Positions 11,625 to 32,499 of a stretch of 64,000 nucleotides of DNA are shown here, piece by piece. The notes under the pieces are model-generated. The model saw only the letters and a program-made list of their open reading frames with translations. It was not told the origin of the DNA and searched no databases. The DNA is taken from the NCBI GenBank assembly GCA_019352035.1, contig JABBNZ010000006.1, positions 8,052-72,051 on the forward strand, given 5' to 3'. The translations under genes and the position numbers were made by a program. Numbering within the stretch: the stretch's first letter is position 1; every line of letters begins with the position of its first letter. The stretch comes from Pseudomonadota bacterium (GTDB lineage: Bacteria; Pseudomonadota; Gammaproteobacteria; Steroidobacterales; Steroidobacteraceae).

Positions 11625-11938
11625 CCGAACGCCGCACGCACCCGGTCGAGGTCACGCACGGCGAGGCTGGTGGTGGAGAGCCGAAAGCATGCGCGCGCAG
11701 CATTTTCAGGGAGCGCTGCGGCCGCAGCGCGCCTAGATCAGCGTCAGCTCCGGCGCAGCTCGCAGGGACAGGGCGCGAGAGGGCCGGCTGCCAGGGCGGC
11801 GCGGCCGGCAGCCGGGAGTGCGGCGGCCAGACAGGAGAGCCGCAATGCCGTGCGCAGGCTCACTCGAGCGGGAGGCTAAGGCATGAGCCGTGGCAAAGGC
11901 TTCCCTGGAGAGCCCCCGAGCCCTCTACAATATTGTCG

Positions 11939-13864
11939 ATGCGCTTTTCCCAACCTTTCGACGTGGTCGTCATCGGCGGCGGTCATGCCGGCACGGAAGC
12001 CGCCCTGGCGTCCGCGCGCATGGGTGCGCGCACATTGCTCCTCACCCAGAGCATCGAGACGCTGGGTCAGATGAGCTGCAATCCCGCCGTGGGCGGCATC
12101 GGCAAGGGACATCTGGTGCGCGAGATCGACGCGCTCGGCGGCGCCATGGCGCGCGCCACGGACCGCGCGGGCATCCAGTTTCGGACCCTGAACGGCAGCA
12201 AGGGTCCCGCGGTGCGCGCCACGCGCGCCCAGGCGGACCGCCAGCTCTACCGCAAAGCGATCCGCGCGCTGCTCGAGGCCGAGCCGCATTTGTCGATCTT
12301 CCAGCAGGAGGCGGCTGACCTCCTGGTCGAGGGCGAGACGGTCAAGGGCGTCGTCACGGTGACCGGCATTGCCTTCGAGGCGCCGGCGGTCGTGCTCACC
12401 GTGGGCACCTTCCTCGGCGGGCGAATTCACGTGGGTCTCGATCACTACCAGGGCGGCCGCGCCGGCGATCCGCCGTCGAACCGATTGGCGAGCCGTCTGC
12501 GGGAGCTGCCGCTGCGGGTCGGGCGCCTCAAGACCGGCACACCGCCGCGGTTGGACGGCCGGACGCTCGATTTCTCGGTCATGACCCGCCAGACCAGCGA
12601 CGCCCCGTTGCCGGTGTTTTCGTTTCTGGGGCGAGCCGCAGAGCACCCTGAACAGATCGATTGTTTCATTACGCATACCAACGAGCGAACTCACGACATC
12701 ATCCGCCGGGCTGCGGACCGCTCTCCGATGTTTACGGGCGTGATCGAGGGAGTGGGTCCCCGCTACTGTCCTTCCGTGGAAGACAAGGTTTTTCGCTTCG
12801 CGGACAAGACCTCGCATCAGATCTTCGTCGAGCCCGAGGGTCTGGAGACCCATGAGATCTACCCCAACGGCATTTCGACCAGCCTGCCGTTCGACGTCCA
12901 GCTCGAGCTCGTGCACAGCATTCCAGGGTTCGAGAGGGCGCACCTGACGAGGCCCGGGTATGCGATCGAGTACGACTACTTCGATCCGCGCGACCTGCAC
13001 CCCTCACTCGAAACCCGGGAGCTGCACGGCCTCTTCTTCGCCGGGCAGATCAACGGCACGACCGGCTACGAGGAGGCTGCGGCGCAGGGCATCGTGGCGG
13101 GCATCAGCGCGGCGCTCGGCTGGCGCGGGCAAGATCCCTGGGTGCCAAAGCGCAGTGACGCCTACCTCGGCGTGCTCATCGACGACCTGACGGCCCGGGG
13201 AACCCGGGAGCCGTACCGCATGTTCACCAGCCGCGCGGAGCATCGCCTGCTGCTGCGCGAGGACAATGCCGATCTGCGCCTGACGCCGGTGGGCCGCGAG
13301 CTCGGCCTCGTGGACGATGAGCGTTGGCGGCTTTTCGAGGCGAGGCAGCGCCTGTCGGACGAGGAGACGGCCCGCCTGCGGAGCGTGCGCGTGCGCCCCG
13401 GCGAGGTCCCGGAGGAATGGTCGCAGCGAGTGCTCGCGGGACCGCTGGCGCGCGATACATCGGCATTCGAGCTGCTGCGCCGCCCGGAAGTGAGTTACGA
13501 CACCCTGCTCGAAGTGGCAGGCACGCCGGACTGGCTGGCGGGTACGCCCGAGCCGGACGACCGAGTGCCGCCCCAGGTGCGCATAGAGGTCGAGGCCCGC
13601 GCGAAGTACGCCGGCTACATAGAGCGCCAGCGCGAGGAGATCGAGCGACAGCGCCGCAACGAGGAGACGAAGCTGCCCGAGGACACCGACTACCACCAGG
13701 TGGCAGGACTCTCGCACGAGGTGCGCGGCCTCCTTGCGGAGTATCGCCCGGCCACGGTCGGGCAGGCCGGCCGTGTCCCGGGCGTGACACCGGCCGCGGT
13801 CACGCTGTTGCTGGTGCACCTGAAGAAGCGCAGCCTGGCGGCCGAGCGCGCCCGCACCGCATGA
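11939..13864 (+). CDS. mnmG: tRNA uridine-5-carboxymethylaminomethyl modification enzyme MnmG
   Basis: [67 protein letters not shown]. Confidence 0.96.
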
Positions 13865-20011: not shown

Positions 20012-21364
20012 CTACTTGCCGATGCAGAAGCTGCCGAAGATCCGGCCCAGGAGGTCCTCGCTGGTGAAGTCCCCGGTGATCTCGTTGAGCGCCTGACTGG
20101 CCCCGCGCAGCTCCTCGGCGACCAGCTCGCCGGCGCGGCTCTCGCGCAGCCGCCGCTGCGCCTCCGCTATCTGCCGCCGCGCACGATCGAGCGCATCGAT
20201 ATGCCGCTGCCGGGCGGAAATGGTTCCGGCATCGACCGTCTGATATCCCATGCACGACTTCAGGTGGGCGCGCAGCGTGTCCAGCCCCTGCCCGGTGAGG
20301 GCTGACAGAGCCACCCGCGGCGGACCCGCCAGGGTGTCGGCGACCGGAAGTCCCCGGGTCAGGTCGCACTTGTTGAGCACCAACGTCACGGGGACCTCGG
20401 GCGGCAATCGGTCTTTTTCCTCGCCGTACGCCGCCGCGCCGGGATCCTCGGCGGCATCGACGACGAAGAGCACGCGATCCGCGCGCCGCATCTCCTCATG
20501 CGCCCGCCGGATGCCTTCCGCTTCTACGACATCCGCATCCTGCCGCAATCCGGCAGTGTCGAGCACGTGCAGAGGCATCCCGTCGATGTCGATCCGCTCA
20601 CGGACGATGTCCCGCGTCGTCCCTGGGATGGGCGTCACGATGGCCGCGTCGTATCCGGCGAGGCGGTTGAGCAGGCTCGACTTGCCCGCGTTGGGCCTGC
20701 CCGCGATCACGACCGTCATGCCCTCGCGCAGCAACCGGCCCTGCCGCGCGCTCTGCTCGACGGCGGTGAAGTGCGTGTGCACCGCCTGGAAGCGCTCCTC
20801 GAGCTCCCGGTCGGCGAGGAAATCGATCTCTTCCTCCGGAAAATCGATGGCCGCCTCGACGTAAGTGCGCAGGTCGATCACCGCCTCGGTGAGCCCACGC
20901 ACCATCGCGGAGAACTCTCCCTGGAGCGAGCGCATGGCCGCACGTGCCGCCTCGCGCGAGCCGGCATCGATGAGATCGGCAATCGCCTCGGCCTGCGTGA
21001 GATCCAGCTTGTTGTTGAGGAAGGCGCGCTGCGTGAACTCGCCCGGCAGGGCTCTTCTGCCACCCAGCTCCACCACCCGGGCCACCAGCGCCTCGAGCAC
21101 CAGCGGTCCGCCGTGGCCATGCAGCTCCAGGATGTGCTCGCCGGTATAGGAGTGCGGCCCGGGAAAGAAGAGGGCGAGACCGGCGTCGATCGGCTCCTGC
21201 GCGGCATCGAGAAAGCGGGCGAATCCGGCCCGGCGCGGCAACGGCAGCTCCCCGAGCAGCACAGCGGCGATCTCGGGTGCCCGTGGGCCCGATACCCGTA
21301 CGATCCCGATCCCGCCCCTTCCGGGCGGGGTGGCCGCCGCCACGATGGTATCCGTGCGGCTCAT
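20012..21364 (-). CDS. mnmE: tRNA modification GTPase MnmE
   Basis: DTIVAAATPPGRGGIGIVRVSG; GRPNAGKSSLLNRLAG; C-terminal FCIGK. Confidence 0.96.
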   Translation of the reverse strand: MSRTDTIVAAATPPGRGGIGIVRVSGPRAPEIAAVLLGELPLPRRAGFARFLDAAQEPIDAGLALFFPGPHSYTGEHILELHGHGGPLVLEALVARVVELGGRRALPGEFTQRAFLNNKLDLTQAEAIADLIDAGSREAARAAMRSLQGEFSAMVRGLTEAVIDLRTYVEAAIDFPEEEIDFLADRELEERFQAVHTHFTAVEQSARQGRLLREGMTVVIAGRPNAGKSSLLNRLAGYDAAIVTPIPGTTRDIVRERIDIDGMPLHVLDTAGLRQDADVVEAEGIRRAHEEMRRADRVLFVVDAAEDPGAAAYGEEKDRLPPEVPVTLVLNKCDLTRGLPVADTLAGPPRVALSALTGQGLDTLRAHLKSCMGYQTVDAGTISARQRHIDALDRARRQIAEAQRRLRESRAGELVAEELRGASQALNEITGDFTSEDLLGRIFGSFCIGK

Positions 21365-23909: not shown

Positions 23910-24023
23910 AGTCTATAAGCTGAAGCCGGCCGTGGAGCCGATTCAGCAGACCTCCGCCGGCCCATGCGCGCAGCGTAAGGCCGAAAGTGGCAACCTTGAA
24001 GTCGGAGCCTTCTTCGGAGCCTG

Positions 24024-24158
24024 TTAAGGGATCAGCTTGCGCCGGCCCTTGGCGCGGCGGCGGGCCAGCACTTTACGACCGTTCTGGGTCGCCATGCGCG
24101 CTCGGAACCCGTGCGTACGCTTTCGGCGCAGCTTGCTCGGCTGGTAGGTACGCTTCAT
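24024..24158 (-). CDS. rpmH: 50S ribosomal protein L34
   Basis: Translated by hand: [44 protein letters not shown]; absent from the supplied ORF track because of its length. Confidence 0.97.
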
Positions 24159-24371
24159 ACCGAAGGCTCCCGGGGATCCGTGGGTTCCAAAAAAGGGGCG
24201 GCAAGGCTAAGCCGTTGAGTGCCAAGGTGTCAATATTTATTCGGCGGATCTTTCGCGGCCCCGCGGATTCGGATGCGGCGCCGCGGGCAGCGCAACACCT
24301 TCAGCGCTGACGCTCTAGGGTATAGACTCCGCAGCCCTTTCCCCGTCGAATTGGTCGCGGAGGCTTGCCGC

Positions 24372-25724
24372 GTGGAAGCATCGCTTTGGGCTCGGTGTAA
24401 ATGTGCTTTGGAGACCGAGCTCCCGGAGCCCCAGTTCAATACCTGGGTGCGGCCTCTTCAAGCGGTGGAAGGTGCCGGCGCGCTCAAGCTCCTCGCACCC
24501 AACCGTTTCGCGGTCGAGTGGATCAACGAGCACCTGCTGCCGCGCATCGGGGAGCTGCTGCGCGCGGAAAGCACTGGCGATGCGCCCATCGTCACGGTCG
24601 AGGTCGGCTCGCGCCCCGCATCGCGCGCCGCCGTGGCACCAGTGGCGCCGCCGGGCGCCTCCCTGCCGCTCCAGCGGCCTCGCCGGGCGGAGGGCCTCGT
24701 GGTGGGCGCGCGCATCAATGCGGACTCCACCTTCGGCACCTTCGTCGAGGGCAAAAGCAACCAGCTCGCCAAGGCCGCATCTTTGCAGGTGGCTGAAAAC
24801 CCGGGCCGTGCCTATAACCCGCTGTTTCTCTACGGCGGTGTTGGGCTCGGCAAGACGCACCTGATGCATGCCATCGCGCACCTCATCAAGGAGCGGGATG
24901 GCGAAGCGCGCATCGCCTACGTTCACTCGGAGCGATTCGTTGGCGACATGGTGCGTGCGCTGCAGCACAACACCATGAACGAGTTCAAGACGGCCTATCG
25001 CTCGCTCGATGCGCTGCTCATCGACGACATCCAGTTCTTCGCCGGCAAGGAGCGCTCGCAGGAGGAGTTCTTCCACACCTTCAACGAGCTGCTCGAGGGC
25101 CAGCACCAGGTCATCCTCAGCTGCGACCGTTACCCGAAGGAGGTCGATGGGCTGGAGGAGCGCCTGAAGTCGCGTTTCGGATGGGGATTGACGGTGGCCA
25201 TCGAGCCGCCGGAGCTCGAGACCTGCGTCGCCATCCTGATGACCAAGGCGCAGCACGCGGGCTCCCATCTGCCGGAGGAGGTGGCATTCTTCATCGCCAA
25301 GCGCATCCGCTCCAATGTACGCGAGCTCGAAGGCGCGCTGCGGCGCGTGATCGCCAACTCACGTTTCACCGGGCATGCCATCACCCTGGACTTCACCCGC
25401 GAGGCGTTGAAGGACCTGCTGTCCCTGCAGGCGAAGCTCGTCACCATCGAGAACATCCAGAAGACGGTGGCGGACTACTACAAGGTCCGCATGGCGGACC
25501 TGCTCTCCAAGCGGCGCAGCCGCTCGGTGGCACGGCCGCGCCAGGTCGCCATGGCGCTCTCCAAGGAGCTCACCAGCCACAGTCTGCCGGAGATCGGTGA
25601 CGCCTTCGGCGGTCGCGACCACACGACGGTGCTGCATGCCTGCAAGCGGATCAAGGAGCTGCGCGGCTCCGAGGTCCGCATCAGCGAGGACTACTCAAAC
25701 CTGTTGAGAACCCTGACGGGTTGA
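24372..25724 (+). CDS. dnaA: Chromosomal replication initiator protein DnaA
   Basis: (GTG)[60 protein letters not shown]. Track ORF start at 24219 is probably too long. Confidence 0.95.
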
Positions 25725-25939
25725 TGGGGAAAAGCCTGTGGATTTTCTGTGAGCGTCCGAGGGGGTAAAGTTACGCACAGGGCGCGCACAGTTGCCGCGC
25801 AGGTGGTGCCACAAGGCTTGGGGCGGGATGGACGGGCCAAGCTGTTGATCCTGTGGGGCGGAAACGGTTGTTCCCGCTATCCCCAGGCTCTATAGCTACT
25901 ACAATCTGATCTCTAAGATTCTCAAGAAAGAATATAGAT
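25725..25939. other. oriC: Candidate oriC (dnaA-dnaN intergenic)
   Basis: DnaA-box-like sequences TGTGGATTT (25737-25745), TTACGCACA (25771-25779), CTATCCCCA (25877-25885), followed by an AT-rich stretch up to dnaN in an otherwise GC-rich window. Confidence 0.55.
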
Positions 25940-27034
25940 ATGAAGCTGACGGCGACGCGCGAGGATCTTCTCGCTCCCTTGCAAAGCGTGATCGGCGTGG
26001 TCGAGCGGCGGCAGACGATGCCGGTCCTCGCGAACGTATTGCTGTCGGCACGCGACAATCGGCTGGCCATCACGGGGACGGATCTCGAAGTCGAGCTCGT
26101 CGCCGCGAAGAAGGTCGGGGTCGAGCAGCCGGGCGACGTGACGGTCCCGGGACGCAAGCTCCTCGACATCTTCAAGGCACTGCCGGACGGCGTGAACATC
26201 ACGCTGAGCACGGAAGGGGAACGTGTGATCGTGCGGGCGGGCCGCAGCCGTTTCACGCTGTCCACCCTGCCGGCGGCGGAGTTTCCGGTGCTCGAGGAGA
26301 TCAACGCGGCACAGACGCTCTGCGTGGCGCAGGGAGAATTCCGGCGGCTCATCGACAAGACGCACTTCTCGATGGCCCAGCAGGACGTCCGCTATTACCT
26401 CAACGGCCTTTTGCTGGAGACGCAGGAGAGCGTGCTGCGCGCCGTGGCGACGGATGGCCACCGCCTGGCGGTGTCGGAGATGGCGCTGTCCTCCCCGGCG
26501 AAGCCTGGACAAGTGATCCTGCCGCGCAAGGGCGTGCTCGAGCTGCAGCGTATCCTGGGTACCGAGGGGGAGATCGAGCTGGCGATCGGCACCAATCACG
26601 TTCGCGCCCAAGTGGGTGACATTCGATTCAGTTCGAAGCTGATCGATGGCCGTTTCCCGGAGTACGGACGGGTCATCCCGAGCAATCCGAGCAAGCGGGT
26701 CGAGGCGGATCGGGAGCTTCTGCGGCACGCATTGCAGCGCACGGCAATTCTGTCGAACGAGAAGTACCGGGGGGTCCGGTTGGGAGTGAAGACGGACCTG
26801 CTCACAATCCAGGCCCACAATCCTGAGCAGGAGGAGGCTGAGGATCAGGTGGAGGTCGTCTACGCGGGGGACGAGGTGGAGATTGGCTTCAACGTCAATT
26901 ACCTGCTGGATGCATTGAGCGCGATCGAGGGAGATAAGGTCGAGATCGGGCTTACGGATGCCAATAGCAGCTGCTTGATTCACGCGCCGGGGCTGACGCA
27001 GACCCGGTACGTGGTCATGCCGATGAGGTTGTAA
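25940..27034 (+). CDS. dnaN: DNA polymerase III subunit beta
   Basis: MKLTATREDLLAPLQSVIGVVERRQTMPVLANVLL; C-terminal YVVMPMRL. Confidence 0.97.
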   Translation: MKLTATREDLLAPLQSVIGVVERRQTMPVLANVLLSARDNRLAITGTDLEVELVAAKKVGVEQPGDVTVPGRKLLDIFKALPDGVNITLSTEGERVIVRAGRSRFTLSTLPAAEFPVLEEINAAQTLCVAQGEFRRLIDKTHFSMAQQDVRYYLNGLLLETQESVLRAVATDGHRLAVSEMALSSPAKPGQVILPRKGVLELQRILGTEGEIELAIGTNHVRAQVGDIRFSSKLIDGRFPEYGRVIPSNPSKRVEADRELLRHALQRTAILSNEKYRGVRLGVKTDLLTIQAHNPEQEEAEDQVEVVYAGDEVEIGFNVNYLLDALSAIEGDKVEIGLTDANSSCLIHAPGLTQTRYVVMPMRL

Positions 27035-27144
27035 CCGCATATCGTCCCGATTCGGTACGATGGGTCAGGGAGCGACTGCACGATGAGCCCTGGCCGCATT
27101 ACCATCAGGCACTCCGCTCCGTACCTTCCGTGGTGGTAAGTCGC

Positions 27145-27201
27145 CTGGCCCGCGCGGTCCGGCGCGGGCGGCCGCCGCATGCGGCGGCCCCTGCAGGCCA
27201 G
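27145..27201. other. Three-way-junction-forming palindromes in dnaN-recF spacer
   Basis: Outer CTGGCC/GGCCAG; inner CCCGCGC-N6-GCGCGGG; inner 20-bp perfect palindrome GGCCGCCGCATGCGGCGGCC (27170-27189). Confidence 0.55.
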
Positions 27202-27401
27202 CGGATCGCGTTTTTGCCTCCCGCGGTCCTGTTCGGGACAAAAAGTCGTGGTGCAACTGAGCTGCCGGGATCAGTGAGCGGCCGGGGAGGCCGATAGCCG
27301 TATCCATGCATCTCCCAGCGGCAGCTCCCTTTGCAAGTGAGACCCGCGGTCCGAATGTCAAAATACCTGATCGTCAGCATCGACTCGTCCGCAGCGAACT
27401 C

Positions 27402-28478
27402 ATGATCCTCGGCGAGCTCACCGTTCGCGATCTTCGCTGCATCGAGCAGGCGGAGCTTTCCCTGCATCCTGGCCGGAATCTCGTTTGGGGCGGGAACGGG
27501 TCGGGGAAGACCTCGCTCCTCGAAGGGATTTTTCTGCTGGGCCGGGGCAGGTCGTTTCGCACGCGCAATTCGGAGCGGCTGGTTCGGCATGGGCAGGAGC
27601 GGCTGGTGGTGTTCGGGAGAACGGAGGGAGCGGGCATTCAGGGGAGTGGGTGGGTGCATGCCGTTGGGGTGGAGGTGCATCGACGGGAGGGGACGCGGGC
27701 TCGGCTGGATGGGTCGCCCGTGGGCTCCCTGGCGGATCTCTCGAGAGTGTTTCCGGTGCAGGTGATCGACCCGGAGATTCACAAGCTCATCGAGGAGGGC
27801 GGAAGGCGACGGAGGCGCTGGCTCGACTGGGCGGTGTTCCACGTGGAACCTCGGTTTGCCGACTGGTGGGTCCGGTACGGGCGGGCCATGCGGCAGAGGA
27901 ATGCGGTGCTGCGAACGCGCAGCGGCGCGACGAAGCCCTGGGACGTGGAGCTCACGGCTCTCGGGGAAAGGATTTCCGAGGCGCGACGGGCGGTGTTGGA
28001 GCAAATGCAGCCCCACTGGCACGAAGTGGCTGCTGCGCTCGATTGCCCGGCGGCCGAGTTGCAGTACTTCAGGGGCTGGGGGGCTCAGCACTCGCTGGCG
28101 GAGGCACTGGAGAGCTCGCGGCCACGGGACGAGGCTCGTGGCGTGACCCACGCGGGGCCACATCGCGCGGATGTCCCGATCCGGGTGGACGGCAAGCTCG
28201 CGCGCGAGGTGCTCTCACGCGGCCAGCAGAAGCTCATGGCGGTGGCGCTGACGCTGGCACAGTTGCGGCTGCTGAAGGAGGTCTCGGAGACGACTCCAAC
28301 CCTGCTTCTGGATGATCCGGCCGCCGAGCTCGATTCCGAGCACTTGGGATATTTCGTCGAGCAGATCGCGCGACTTGGATGCCAGCTGGTCATTACCTCC
28401 CTGCAGCCAGAAACATCCGCCTTTGGGGCCCCCGATCGGGTGTTTCACGTGGAACAGGGCAGGGTGGGCCCGGTATAA
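27402..28478 (+). CDS. recF: DNA replication and repair protein RecF
   Basis: MILGELTVRDLRCIEQAELSLHPGRNLVWGGNGSGKTSLLEGIFLLGRGRSFRT. Confidence 0.95.
   Translation: MILGELTVRDLRCIEQAELSLHPGRNLVWGGNGSGKTSLLEGIFLLGRGRSFRTRNSERLVRHGQERLVVFGRTEGAGIQGSGWVHAVGVEVHRREGTRARLDGSPVGSLADLSRVFPVQVIDPEIHKLIEEGGRRRRRWLDWAVFHVEPRFADWWVRYGRAMRQRNAVLRTRSGATKPWDVELTALGERISEARRAVLEQMQPHWHEVAAALDCPAAELQYFRGWGAQHSLAEALESSRPRDEARGVTHAGPHRADVPIRVDGKLAREVLSRGQQKLMAVALTLAQLRLLKEVSETTPTLLLDDPAAELDSEHLGYFVEQIARLGCQLVITSLQPETSAFGAPDRVFHVEQGRVGPV
27835..27850. promoter_or_regulatory. parS: parS-like ParB-binding site 1 (inside recF)
   Basis: TGTTCCACGTGGAACC; perfect 14-bp palindrome GTTCCACGTGGAAC; matches the bacterial parS core TGTTNCACGTGNAACA except the last base. 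Confidence 0.8.
28441..28456. promoter_or_regulatory. parS: parS-like ParB-binding site 2 (3' end of recF)
   Basis: TGTTTCACGTGGAACA, full match to the parS consensus TGTTNCACGTGNAACA. Confidence 0.88.
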
Positions 28479-30923
<2,445 letters not shown>

Positions 30924-31030
30924 CACCAGATCGCGGGAGATCGCGCTTGGCCTGAAGCTCATCCCGCGGCGGAGCGAAGTTTTCCTGCGCGCTCAGCGAC
31001 ATACGTGAGCGGTGACTGCGCGGTTTCTGT

Positions 31031-31281
31031 CTACGCGGCGATCTGCTCGATCCGCTCCAGGGCGCGGCGCCGTTTTGCGGTGGGCGTGGGATGAGATCGA
31101 AGGTGCCGGAGCGCTCGACGGGGCCGGGAGTGCGGCAAGCGTGCGCACGATGGTGGAGAGATCCTTGCAGGGTGCGGAAGCTGTGTGCGGGAGTGCCGTC
31201 GGGGAGGGTGTGCGTGAGGACCTTCTGTAACGCCTGCTCGGAGCGCTTCGCGGGGGCCACCGTTATAGTTTCTGACGGCAT
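31031..31281 (-). pseudogene. Frameshifted C-terminal relic of an IS transposase
   Basis: Minus-strand pieces ...LPDGTPAHSFRTL.. and, in another frame, ..TPTAKRRRALERIEQIAA*; resembles C-termini of IS1634-like transposases (HSFRTLLADLATLTRN...TPTPLQRRAL). Confidence 0.5.
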
Positions 31282-31392
31282 CGGCCGCTGACACGCGCTT
31301 CTTCGGGACTGCGGTGCGCATCACATTGCGATGGACTTTTAAACCAGCGTCAAAACCGCCTACGTTGCGCCGTAGCCGCGCCGCGGTGGCAG

Positions 31393-32499
31393 GTGGCTGA
31401 CAAAGTAGATTGCGTCGTCATCGGCGCGGGCGTGGTCGGCCTGGCGGTCGCGCGCGCCCTGGCCCTGCGTGGCCGGGAGACGATGGTCCTCGAGGCAGAG
31501 GGGGCCATCGGCACGGGCACCAGCTCCCGCAACAGCGAGGTGATCCACGCGGGGATCTACTACACGCCAGGTTCCGCGAAAGCGAGCCTCTGTGTCCGCG
31601 GCAAACACCTTCTCTATTCCTACTGTGAGGCGCGGGGGGTGGAGCACCGCCGGTGCGGCAAGCTGATCGTCGCCTCCGACCCGGAGCAGGTGCAGGCGCT
31701 GCAGAAGATCGAGGCGACTGCGCGCGCGAATGGCGTCACCGACTTGCGCTGGCTCACCGCCGCCGAGACGAAGGCCATGGAGCCGGCCCTGAGCTGCGTG
31801 ACTGCGCTGCTGTCGCGGTCCACCGGCATCGTGGACAGTCATGGCTTCATGCTTGCATTGCAGGGCGACTTCGAGGACGCCGGCGGCACGGTCGCCTTTC
31901 GATCGCCCGTGAGAGGCGGGCACCGCGGCCGGGACGGCATCATTCTCGAGGCGGGCTCGGATGAGATCACCGAGCTCGAAGCGCAGGTCGTCGTCAACAG
32001 CGCGGGGCTGCAGGCCCAGGCGCTGGCGCGGCGGATCGAAGGCGTTGCGCAGGAGACTATTCCCCCCTCAACCTACGCCAAGGGCAACTACTACGTATTG
32101 CAGGGGAAGGCGCCCTTCCGCCATCTTGTCTATCCAGTTCCGGAGCCCGGCGGCCTCGGGGTGCATCTCACGCTCGACCTCGCCGGCCAGGCGAGGTTCG
32201 GACCGGATGTCGAGTGGGTCGAGAAGTTGGACTACACCGTTGATCCTGCCCGTGCCGAGCGCTTCTATCGCGCCATCCGCCGCTACTGGCCGGGGCTGCC
32301 GGACGGCTCTCTGCACCCGGGCTATGCAGGCATCCGCCCCAAGCTCGCCGGGCCGGGCGCCGCCGCCGCCGATTTCCTCATCCAGGGACCGCAGGCCCAT
32401 GGCGTGCGCGGCCTCGTCAATCTCTACGGCATCGAGTCGCCGGGACTCACCGCCGCATTGGCCATCGCAGAGTACGTTGCGGATGCGGTTCCGCGCTAG
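31393..32499 (+). CDS. FAD-dependent oxidoreductase, L-2-hydroxyglutarate oxidase (LhgO)-like
   Basis: [52 protein letters not shown]. Confidence 0.85.

What the first reader, a model, noticed from the sequence alone, without database searches (positions are those of the whole stretch)
27835..28456. Two parS-like sites embedded in the recF coding sequence
TGTTCCACGTGGAACC and TGTTTCACGTGGAACA lie about 600 bp apart within recF and both encode F-H-V-E. parS consensus TGTTNCACGTGNAACA is established knowledge. Centromere sites inside an essential origin-proximal gene mean the coding sequence carries a dual constraint, and parAB is not in this window. The distance to the candidate oriC is only ~2-2.5 kb.
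Basis: partly seen in the sequence, partly recalled or inferred. Interest (0 to 1): 0.72.

Follow-up and report, generated by a model that had tools for sequence, protein, structure and literature searches.

The report
Two chromosome centromere sites inside recF
Two 16-letter DNA sites where the chromosome-segregation protein ParB should dock are written into the coding sequence of the repair gene recF; this arrangement is already known in Pseudomonas, but the comparison here shows it is kept codon for codon across most sampled gamma-proteobacterial families and appears to have shaped part of the RecF protein itself.

Summary
Confirmed. TGTTCCACGTGGAACC (27835, one mismatch, last base) and TGTTTCACGTGGAACA (28441, perfect) lie in frame in recF. 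They are the only parS matches with at most one mismatch in the 4.5-Mb genome. A canonical parA-parB pair lies on the same contig, about 50 kb away and outside the window. So the kind is known. New here is its depth. In 270 gamma-proteobacterial recF genes both sites sit at the same codons. In a class sample of 128 genes the parS-fixed codons are the eight most synonymously conserved of 348 scorable columns, while the Phe wobble base, free in parS, is near expectation. All 21 ParB-less genomes have no parS and have lost the motifs; all 29 ParB-positive genomes beside them have parS. Where parS moved elsewhere, the recF copies decayed. In the window's family (Steroidobacteraceae), 51 of 53 recF loci keep at least two sites, and ten that lost one in-frame site gained a replacement nearby. 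The centromere, rather than RecF function, probably fixed part of the motif. ParB binding in this organism is untested.

The parts
27402..28478 (+). recF coding sequence (host gene of both sites)
   Evidence: ORF and homology, up to 85% identity to named Steroidobacteraceae/gammaproteobacterial RecF; start codon ATG 27402 read from sequence
27835..27850 (.). parS site 1, TGTTCCACGTGGAACC (one outer mismatch; letter-identical to P. aeruginosa parS1); codons GTG TTC CAC GTG GAA CCT = V F H V E P
   Evidence: parS1 sequence from PMC4368675
28441..28456 (.). parS site 2, TGTTTCACGTGGAACA (perfect to TGTTNCACGTGNAACA); codons GTG TTT CAC GTG GAA CAG = V F H V E Q, 22 bases before the end of the recF stop codon
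24373..25724 (+). dnaA (start approximate; the mechanical ORF begins at 24219)
   Evidence: ORF with DnaA sequence, gene order
25725..25939 (.). dnaA-dnaN gap, the only AT-rich stretch of the region, candidate oriC by synteny only
   Evidence: AT content; no consensus DnaA box found
25940..27034 (+). dnaN
28506..30923 (+). gyrB

Best explanation
The two 16-mers are genuine chromosomal parS sites of this bacterium's ParABS system and probably its main or only strong centromere sites. They are the positional orthologues of P. aeruginosa parS1 and parS2. Inferred mechanism: the host's ParB (encoded about 50 kb away on the same contig) recognises them through its helix-turn-helix, loads as a CTP-gated clamp, spreads over the dnaA-dnaN-recF-gyrB region, and the complex is moved by ParA and may load the SMC condensin that the genome encodes. 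Because the sites are in frame (xTG TTN CAC GTG NAA CNN), selection for ParB binding fixes synonymous codons and also the amino acids Val, Glu/Lys and a C-initial codon (His/Gln/Pro/Arg) in RecF. Shown: presence, near-uniqueness, cognate ParB with its parS-specificity residues, class-wide codon-exact conservation, decay where ParB or the recF site is dispensable. Inferred: binding, loading and segregation in this organism.
For: Only two matches with at most 1 mismatch in the genome, both in recF. ParA-ParB pair on the same contig; ParB scores 190 bits to TIGR00180 (cut-off 58) and keeps the residues equivalent to R173, G201 and R204 (residue roles from PMC7383237). SMC present at 1060 bits. 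In 233 recF genes of parS-bearing groups, site-1 codons are CAC 218 of 223 His (expected 109), GTG 212 of 214 Val (73), GAA 201 of 204 Glu (94); site 2 is similar, while the Phe wobble base, free in parS, is at expectation at site 2 (TTT/TTC 122/100 against 115/107). In a class sample the eight parS-fixed codons rank 1-8 of 348 columns. Perfect parS in 29 of 29 ParB-positive and 0 of 21 ParB-negative genomes. Silent mutation of parS1-4 in P. aeruginosa gives anucleate cells although protein sequences are unchanged (PMC4368675; PMC5098823).
Against: No binding or segregation data for this organism. The genome is a 95% complete metagenome assembly, so further sites could be missing. Site 1 has one mismatch, though at the outermost base, as in P. 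aeruginosa parS1, which is bound with only slightly lower affinity. Nine two-mismatch matches lie elsewhere (reversed control 2), so weak extra sites are possible.
Confidence: 0.94

Rival explanations
1. The 16-mers only look like parS because RecF needs the peptide F-H-V-E twice; the DNA similarity is a by-product of a protein motif.
For: Phe (and His at site 1) of the motif persist in lineages without ParB (WGxFH, xMFxVE), so part of it is a protein constraint.
Against: Codon choice at H, V and E is almost invariant against gene-specific usage, while Phe wobble is free. V-E at site 1 is absent in all 22 ParB-less genes and in 15 genes of lineages whose parS lies elsewhere. The next residue varies among Pro, His, Gln, Arg and Leu, unified only by a first base C, and Glu/Lys alternate exactly at the free base of parS.
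Confidence: 0.03
2. Relic sites: the sequences are inherited from an ancestor but no longer used, with the working parS elsewhere.
For: Such relics exist: the Vibrionaceae-like family keeps FHVE at site 2 but with core base 8 changed and perfect parS elsewhere; a same-genus relative (G054) has three one-mismatch sites in the dnaN-recF spacer and degraded recF sites.
Against: In the window genome the cores are intact, the single mismatch is at outer base 16, and no other match with at most 1 mismatch exists in the assembly. Relics elsewhere carry core mismatches at positions 7 or 8.
Confidence: 0.03
3. The palindromes serve another DNA or RNA function (regulator binding site for a CACGTG box, or an mRNA hairpin) that happens to share the sequence.
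For: Perfect palindromes in the gene of a transcribed dnaA-dnaN-recF-gyrB cluster.
Against: Presence of the sequence tracks ParB presence across genomes (29 of 29 against 0 of 21), and lost in-frame sites are replaced by the same 16-mer in other frames or in the spacer.
Confidence: 0.01

Closest known systems
Pseudomonas aeruginosa parS1 and parS2 (ParABS, intragenic in recF)
   Same: Two parS about 600 bp apart inside recF; parS1 is TGTTCCACGTGGAACC, identical to site 1 here; parS2 is a perfect parS like site 2; ParB shown to bind; silent mutation of parS1-4 together abolishes accurate segregation (PMC4368675, PMC5521831, PMC5098823).
   Different: P. aeruginosa has parS3 and parS4 nearby plus six weak sites, and parAB about 7 kb from oriC. 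Here the two recF sites are the only matches with at most 1 mismatch, and parAB is about 50 kb away.
Bacillus subtilis/Caulobacter chromosomal parS
   Same: Same 16-bp palindrome and a ParB with the same specificity residues (PMC7383237).
   Different: Not tied to recF; those RecF proteins lack the motif (own knowledge; solved RecF of Thermoanaerobacter-type and Deinococcus lack FHVE at the aligned positions).

Membership tests
Chromosomal parS centromere sites (ParABS) | 16-bp palindrome TGTTNCACGTGNAACA | tested here: met
   Site 2 perfect, site 1 one outer mismatch
Chromosomal parS centromere sites (ParABS) | Few copies, clustered near the origin rather than scattered | tested here: met
   Only two with at most 1 mismatch in 4.5 Mb, both in recF next to dnaA-dnaN; oriC itself not demonstrated
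Chromosomal parS centromere sites (ParABS) | Cognate chromosomal parA-parB present | tested here: met
   parA-parB on the same contig, TIGR00180 190 bits, 60-68% identity to ParB of many sampled relatives
Chromosomal parS centromere sites (ParABS) | ParB carries the parS-specificity residues Arg173 and Gly201 | tested here: met
   Equivalent residues conserved in the alignment to solved ParB (roles from PMC7383237)
Chromosomal parS centromere sites (ParABS) | Selection on the DNA sequence itself | tested here: met
   parS-fixed codons rank 1-8 of 348 recF columns in the class sample; free wobble base near expectation
Chromosomal parS centromere sites (ParABS) | Physical ParB binding and spreading | not testable with these tools
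   Needs ChIP-seq or gel shift
Chromosomal parS centromere sites (ParABS) | Required for segregation | not testable with these tools
   Shown only for P. aeruginosa parS1-4 (PMC4368675, PMC5098823)
Intragenic parS pair in recF (P. aeruginosa parS1/parS2 type) | Two in-frame parS at the same two RecF codon positions | tested here: met
   Same columns in the 270-gene alignment, spacing 600-651 bp, including the Pseudomonas-like unnamed family f144

The most novel reading that the evidence does not exclude
The centromere dictates protein sequence: across Gammaproteobacteria an in-frame pair of parS in recF has been kept since early in the class, fixing not only synonymous codons but RecF residues (Val, Glu/Lys and a C-initial codon), with site number held at about two by turnover into other frames or the flanking spacers, and RecF relaxing once ParB is lost or parS moves.
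Probability: 0.8. Interest if true: 0.65.

Novelty: new member of a known kind. Interest (0 to 1): 0.5.

Why it matters
It gives a well-replicated natural case of a chromosome-maintenance DNA site overriding protein-level selection in a conserved repair gene, with natural deletion experiments built in (ParB-less lineages and lineages with relocated parS). It also allows the main centromere of uncultured gamma-proteobacteria to be located from recF alone, and warns that the conserved FHVE motifs of RecF should not be read as purely functional residues.

Tried and rejected
Livny et al. 2007, the comparative parS survey, is not in the held library, so whether the class-wide recF conservation was noted there is unknown; searches of the held literature found the recF location only for P. 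aeruginosa. DnaA boxes and GC skew did not pin oriC. Chance match, pure protein motif, relic and alternative DNA/RNA function were considered and rejected on the evidence in the rivals. A raw count of sites with at most 1 mismatch was rejected as the test of function, because ParB-less and relocated lineages keep one-mismatch relics; the mismatch position (core 7/8 against outer 1/16) separates them.

Full report
Observation. The window carries TGTTCCACGTGGAACC at 27835-27850 and TGTTTCACGTGGAACA at 28441-28456. Both lie inside recF, in the same codon phase, reading V-F-H-V-E-P and V-F-H-V-E-Q. In the whole assembly (4.5 Mb, 217 contigs, 95% complete) they are the only matches to TGTTNCACGTGNAACA with at most one mismatch. 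Nine two-mismatch matches lie on other contigs, against two for the reversed control; two-mismatch sites of P. aeruginosa were not bound in vivo (PMC5098823).

ParABS partner. The window ends about 14 kb short of a parA-parB pair on the same contig (C176:86417-87364 for ParB), upstream of an ORF that looks like ATP synthase subunit I. ParB exceeds the TIGR00180 cut-off (190 against 58 bits). It aligns to solved ParB structures with the motif GRSR...MGHAR, so the residues equivalent to R173, G201 and R204, which set parS specificity and contact parS, are conserved (roles from PMC7383237). An SMC condensin gene is present. The closest named relatives are Steroidobacteraceae metagenome assemblies.

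Known precedent. In P. aeruginosa parS1 and parS2 lie within recF (PMC5521831; PMC3909081). parS1 is TGTTCCACGTGGAACC, letter-identical to site 1 here, and parS2 is TGTTCCACGTGGAACA (PMC4368675). One of the four oriC-proximal sites suffices; changing all four (the intragenic ones silently) gives the parB-null phenotype with many anucleate cells. The window's sites are therefore members of a known kind.

Depth of conservation. I aligned 277 recF genes (270 distinct) from the family, the class, the phylum sample and named genomes. In the family, site 1 matches parS with at most one mismatch in 52 of 53 and site 2 in 41 of 52. In a class sample of 128 recF genes, roughly one per family, site 1 has at most one mismatch in 112 of 128 and site 2 in 105 of 127. 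Spacing is 600-651 bp. Of 184 class genomes, 121 hold a perfect parS somewhere, usually one to three copies, and 176 hold a ParB.

Synonymous constraint. With gene-specific codon usage as expectation, site-1 His is CAC in 218 of 223 (expected 109), Val is GTG in 212 of 214 (73) and Glu is GAA in 201 of 204 (94). Site 2 gives CAC 200 of 204, GTG 206 of 215 and GAA 176 of 182. The internal control is the Phe wobble base, which parS leaves free: at site 2 TTT/TTC is 122/100 against 115/107 expected; at site 1 it leans to TTC (161 against 112). Ranking 348 columns of the class alignment by excess codon conservation, the eight parS-fixed codons of the two sites are ranks 1-8 (z 8.8-16.0), the Phe codons rank 25 and 30, and the 95th percentile of all columns is 4.0. 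All columns share one tree, so relatedness alone does not explain the ranking.

Amino-acid constraint. The codon after Glu starts with C in 91 of 91 family/named genes and 120 of 128 class genes at site 1, although it encodes Pro, His, Gln, Arg or Leu. The fourth residue is Glu or Lys, the pair reached through the free base of parS. In 21 ParB-less genomes (15 with RecF 76-96% identical to E. coli, hence Enterobacteriaceae; 6 inferred Pasteurellaceae) plus E. coli K-12, none has V at site-1 position 3. The peptides are FHNE, FHHH, FHQH and similar at site 1 and FTVE, FRVE, FAVD and similar at site 2. None of the 21 holds any perfect parS, while all 29 ParB-positive genomes searched beside them do. 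Two ParB-positive families whose perfect parS lie elsewhere (f153, inferred Vibrionaceae, and f165) have FHSE/FHTE/FHSD at site 1. They keep FHVE at site 2, but in 13 of 15 genes as CAT, a core mismatch at position 8. One-mismatch sites in parS-bearing lineages have the mismatch almost always at outer bases 1 or 16. Solved RecF of a Firmicute and of Deinococcus lack the motif.

Turnover. Of 53 family loci, 51 keep at least two sites (at most one mismatch) in recF or just downstream. Of the loci with one canonical site, ten have a replacement: three out of frame within recF (one genus) and seven close after the recF stop. One other locus with a single canonical site is truncated by the contig end. 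The remaining exception, G054 of the window's own genus, has degraded recF sites and instead three one-mismatch sites within 260 bp in the dnaN-recF spacer. Site number near recF thus looks conserved while exact positions can turn over.

Limits. The test of 'parS elsewhere' is partly circular for f153 and f165, but the ParB-less test is not. oriC was not located independently. No binding data exist for this organism. The main comparative survey of parS could not be read, so the novelty of the class-wide pattern is uncertain.

Verdict. A real, functional-looking parS pair in recF; a new member of the P. aeruginosa parS1/parS2 kind. The evolutionary reading, that the centromere fixes part of the RecF sequence across a class, is well supported here and is the part worth following.

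Noticed in passing
L322:1500-1757 (G054:C18:145750-146007): A genome of the window's own genus has three one-mismatch parS within 260 bp in the dnaN-recF spacer while its in-frame recF sites have decayed: a recent centromere shift.
   Followed up: partly
L048, L052, L055 (genus g15), 346 bp before the end of recF: A parS-like 16-mer (TGTTTCACGTGGAACC) in a different reading frame of recF, apparently replacing the lost in-frame site 2.
   Followed up: partly
L088:186-607 (G005:C97): Four perfect TGTTTCACGTGAAACA within 422 bp at the start of a 27.6-kb contig that does not carry recF; possibly a plasmid or chromid centromere.
   Followed up: no
G000:C183:29136-29648 (L006): A second, divergent ParB-domain protein (88 bits) without an obvious parA beside it, next to an ABC transporter ORF.
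   Followed up: no
window 27035-27400: Unusually long, GC-rich dnaN-recF spacer with strong inverted repeats (RNA fold z about -2.2); function unknown.
   Followed up: partly
window 24000-32000: No clean GC-skew switch at dnaA, and no E. coli-type DnaA box (at most 1 mismatch) in the dnaA-dnaN gap; oriC of this lineage may use other boxes or lie elsewhere.
   Followed up: partly
window 11933-13864 and 20012-21364: mnmG (gidA) and mnmE are near dnaA but not next to parAB, which sits by an ORF resembling ATP synthase subunit I: the usual gamma-proteobacterial gid-par cluster is broken up here.
   Followed up: no
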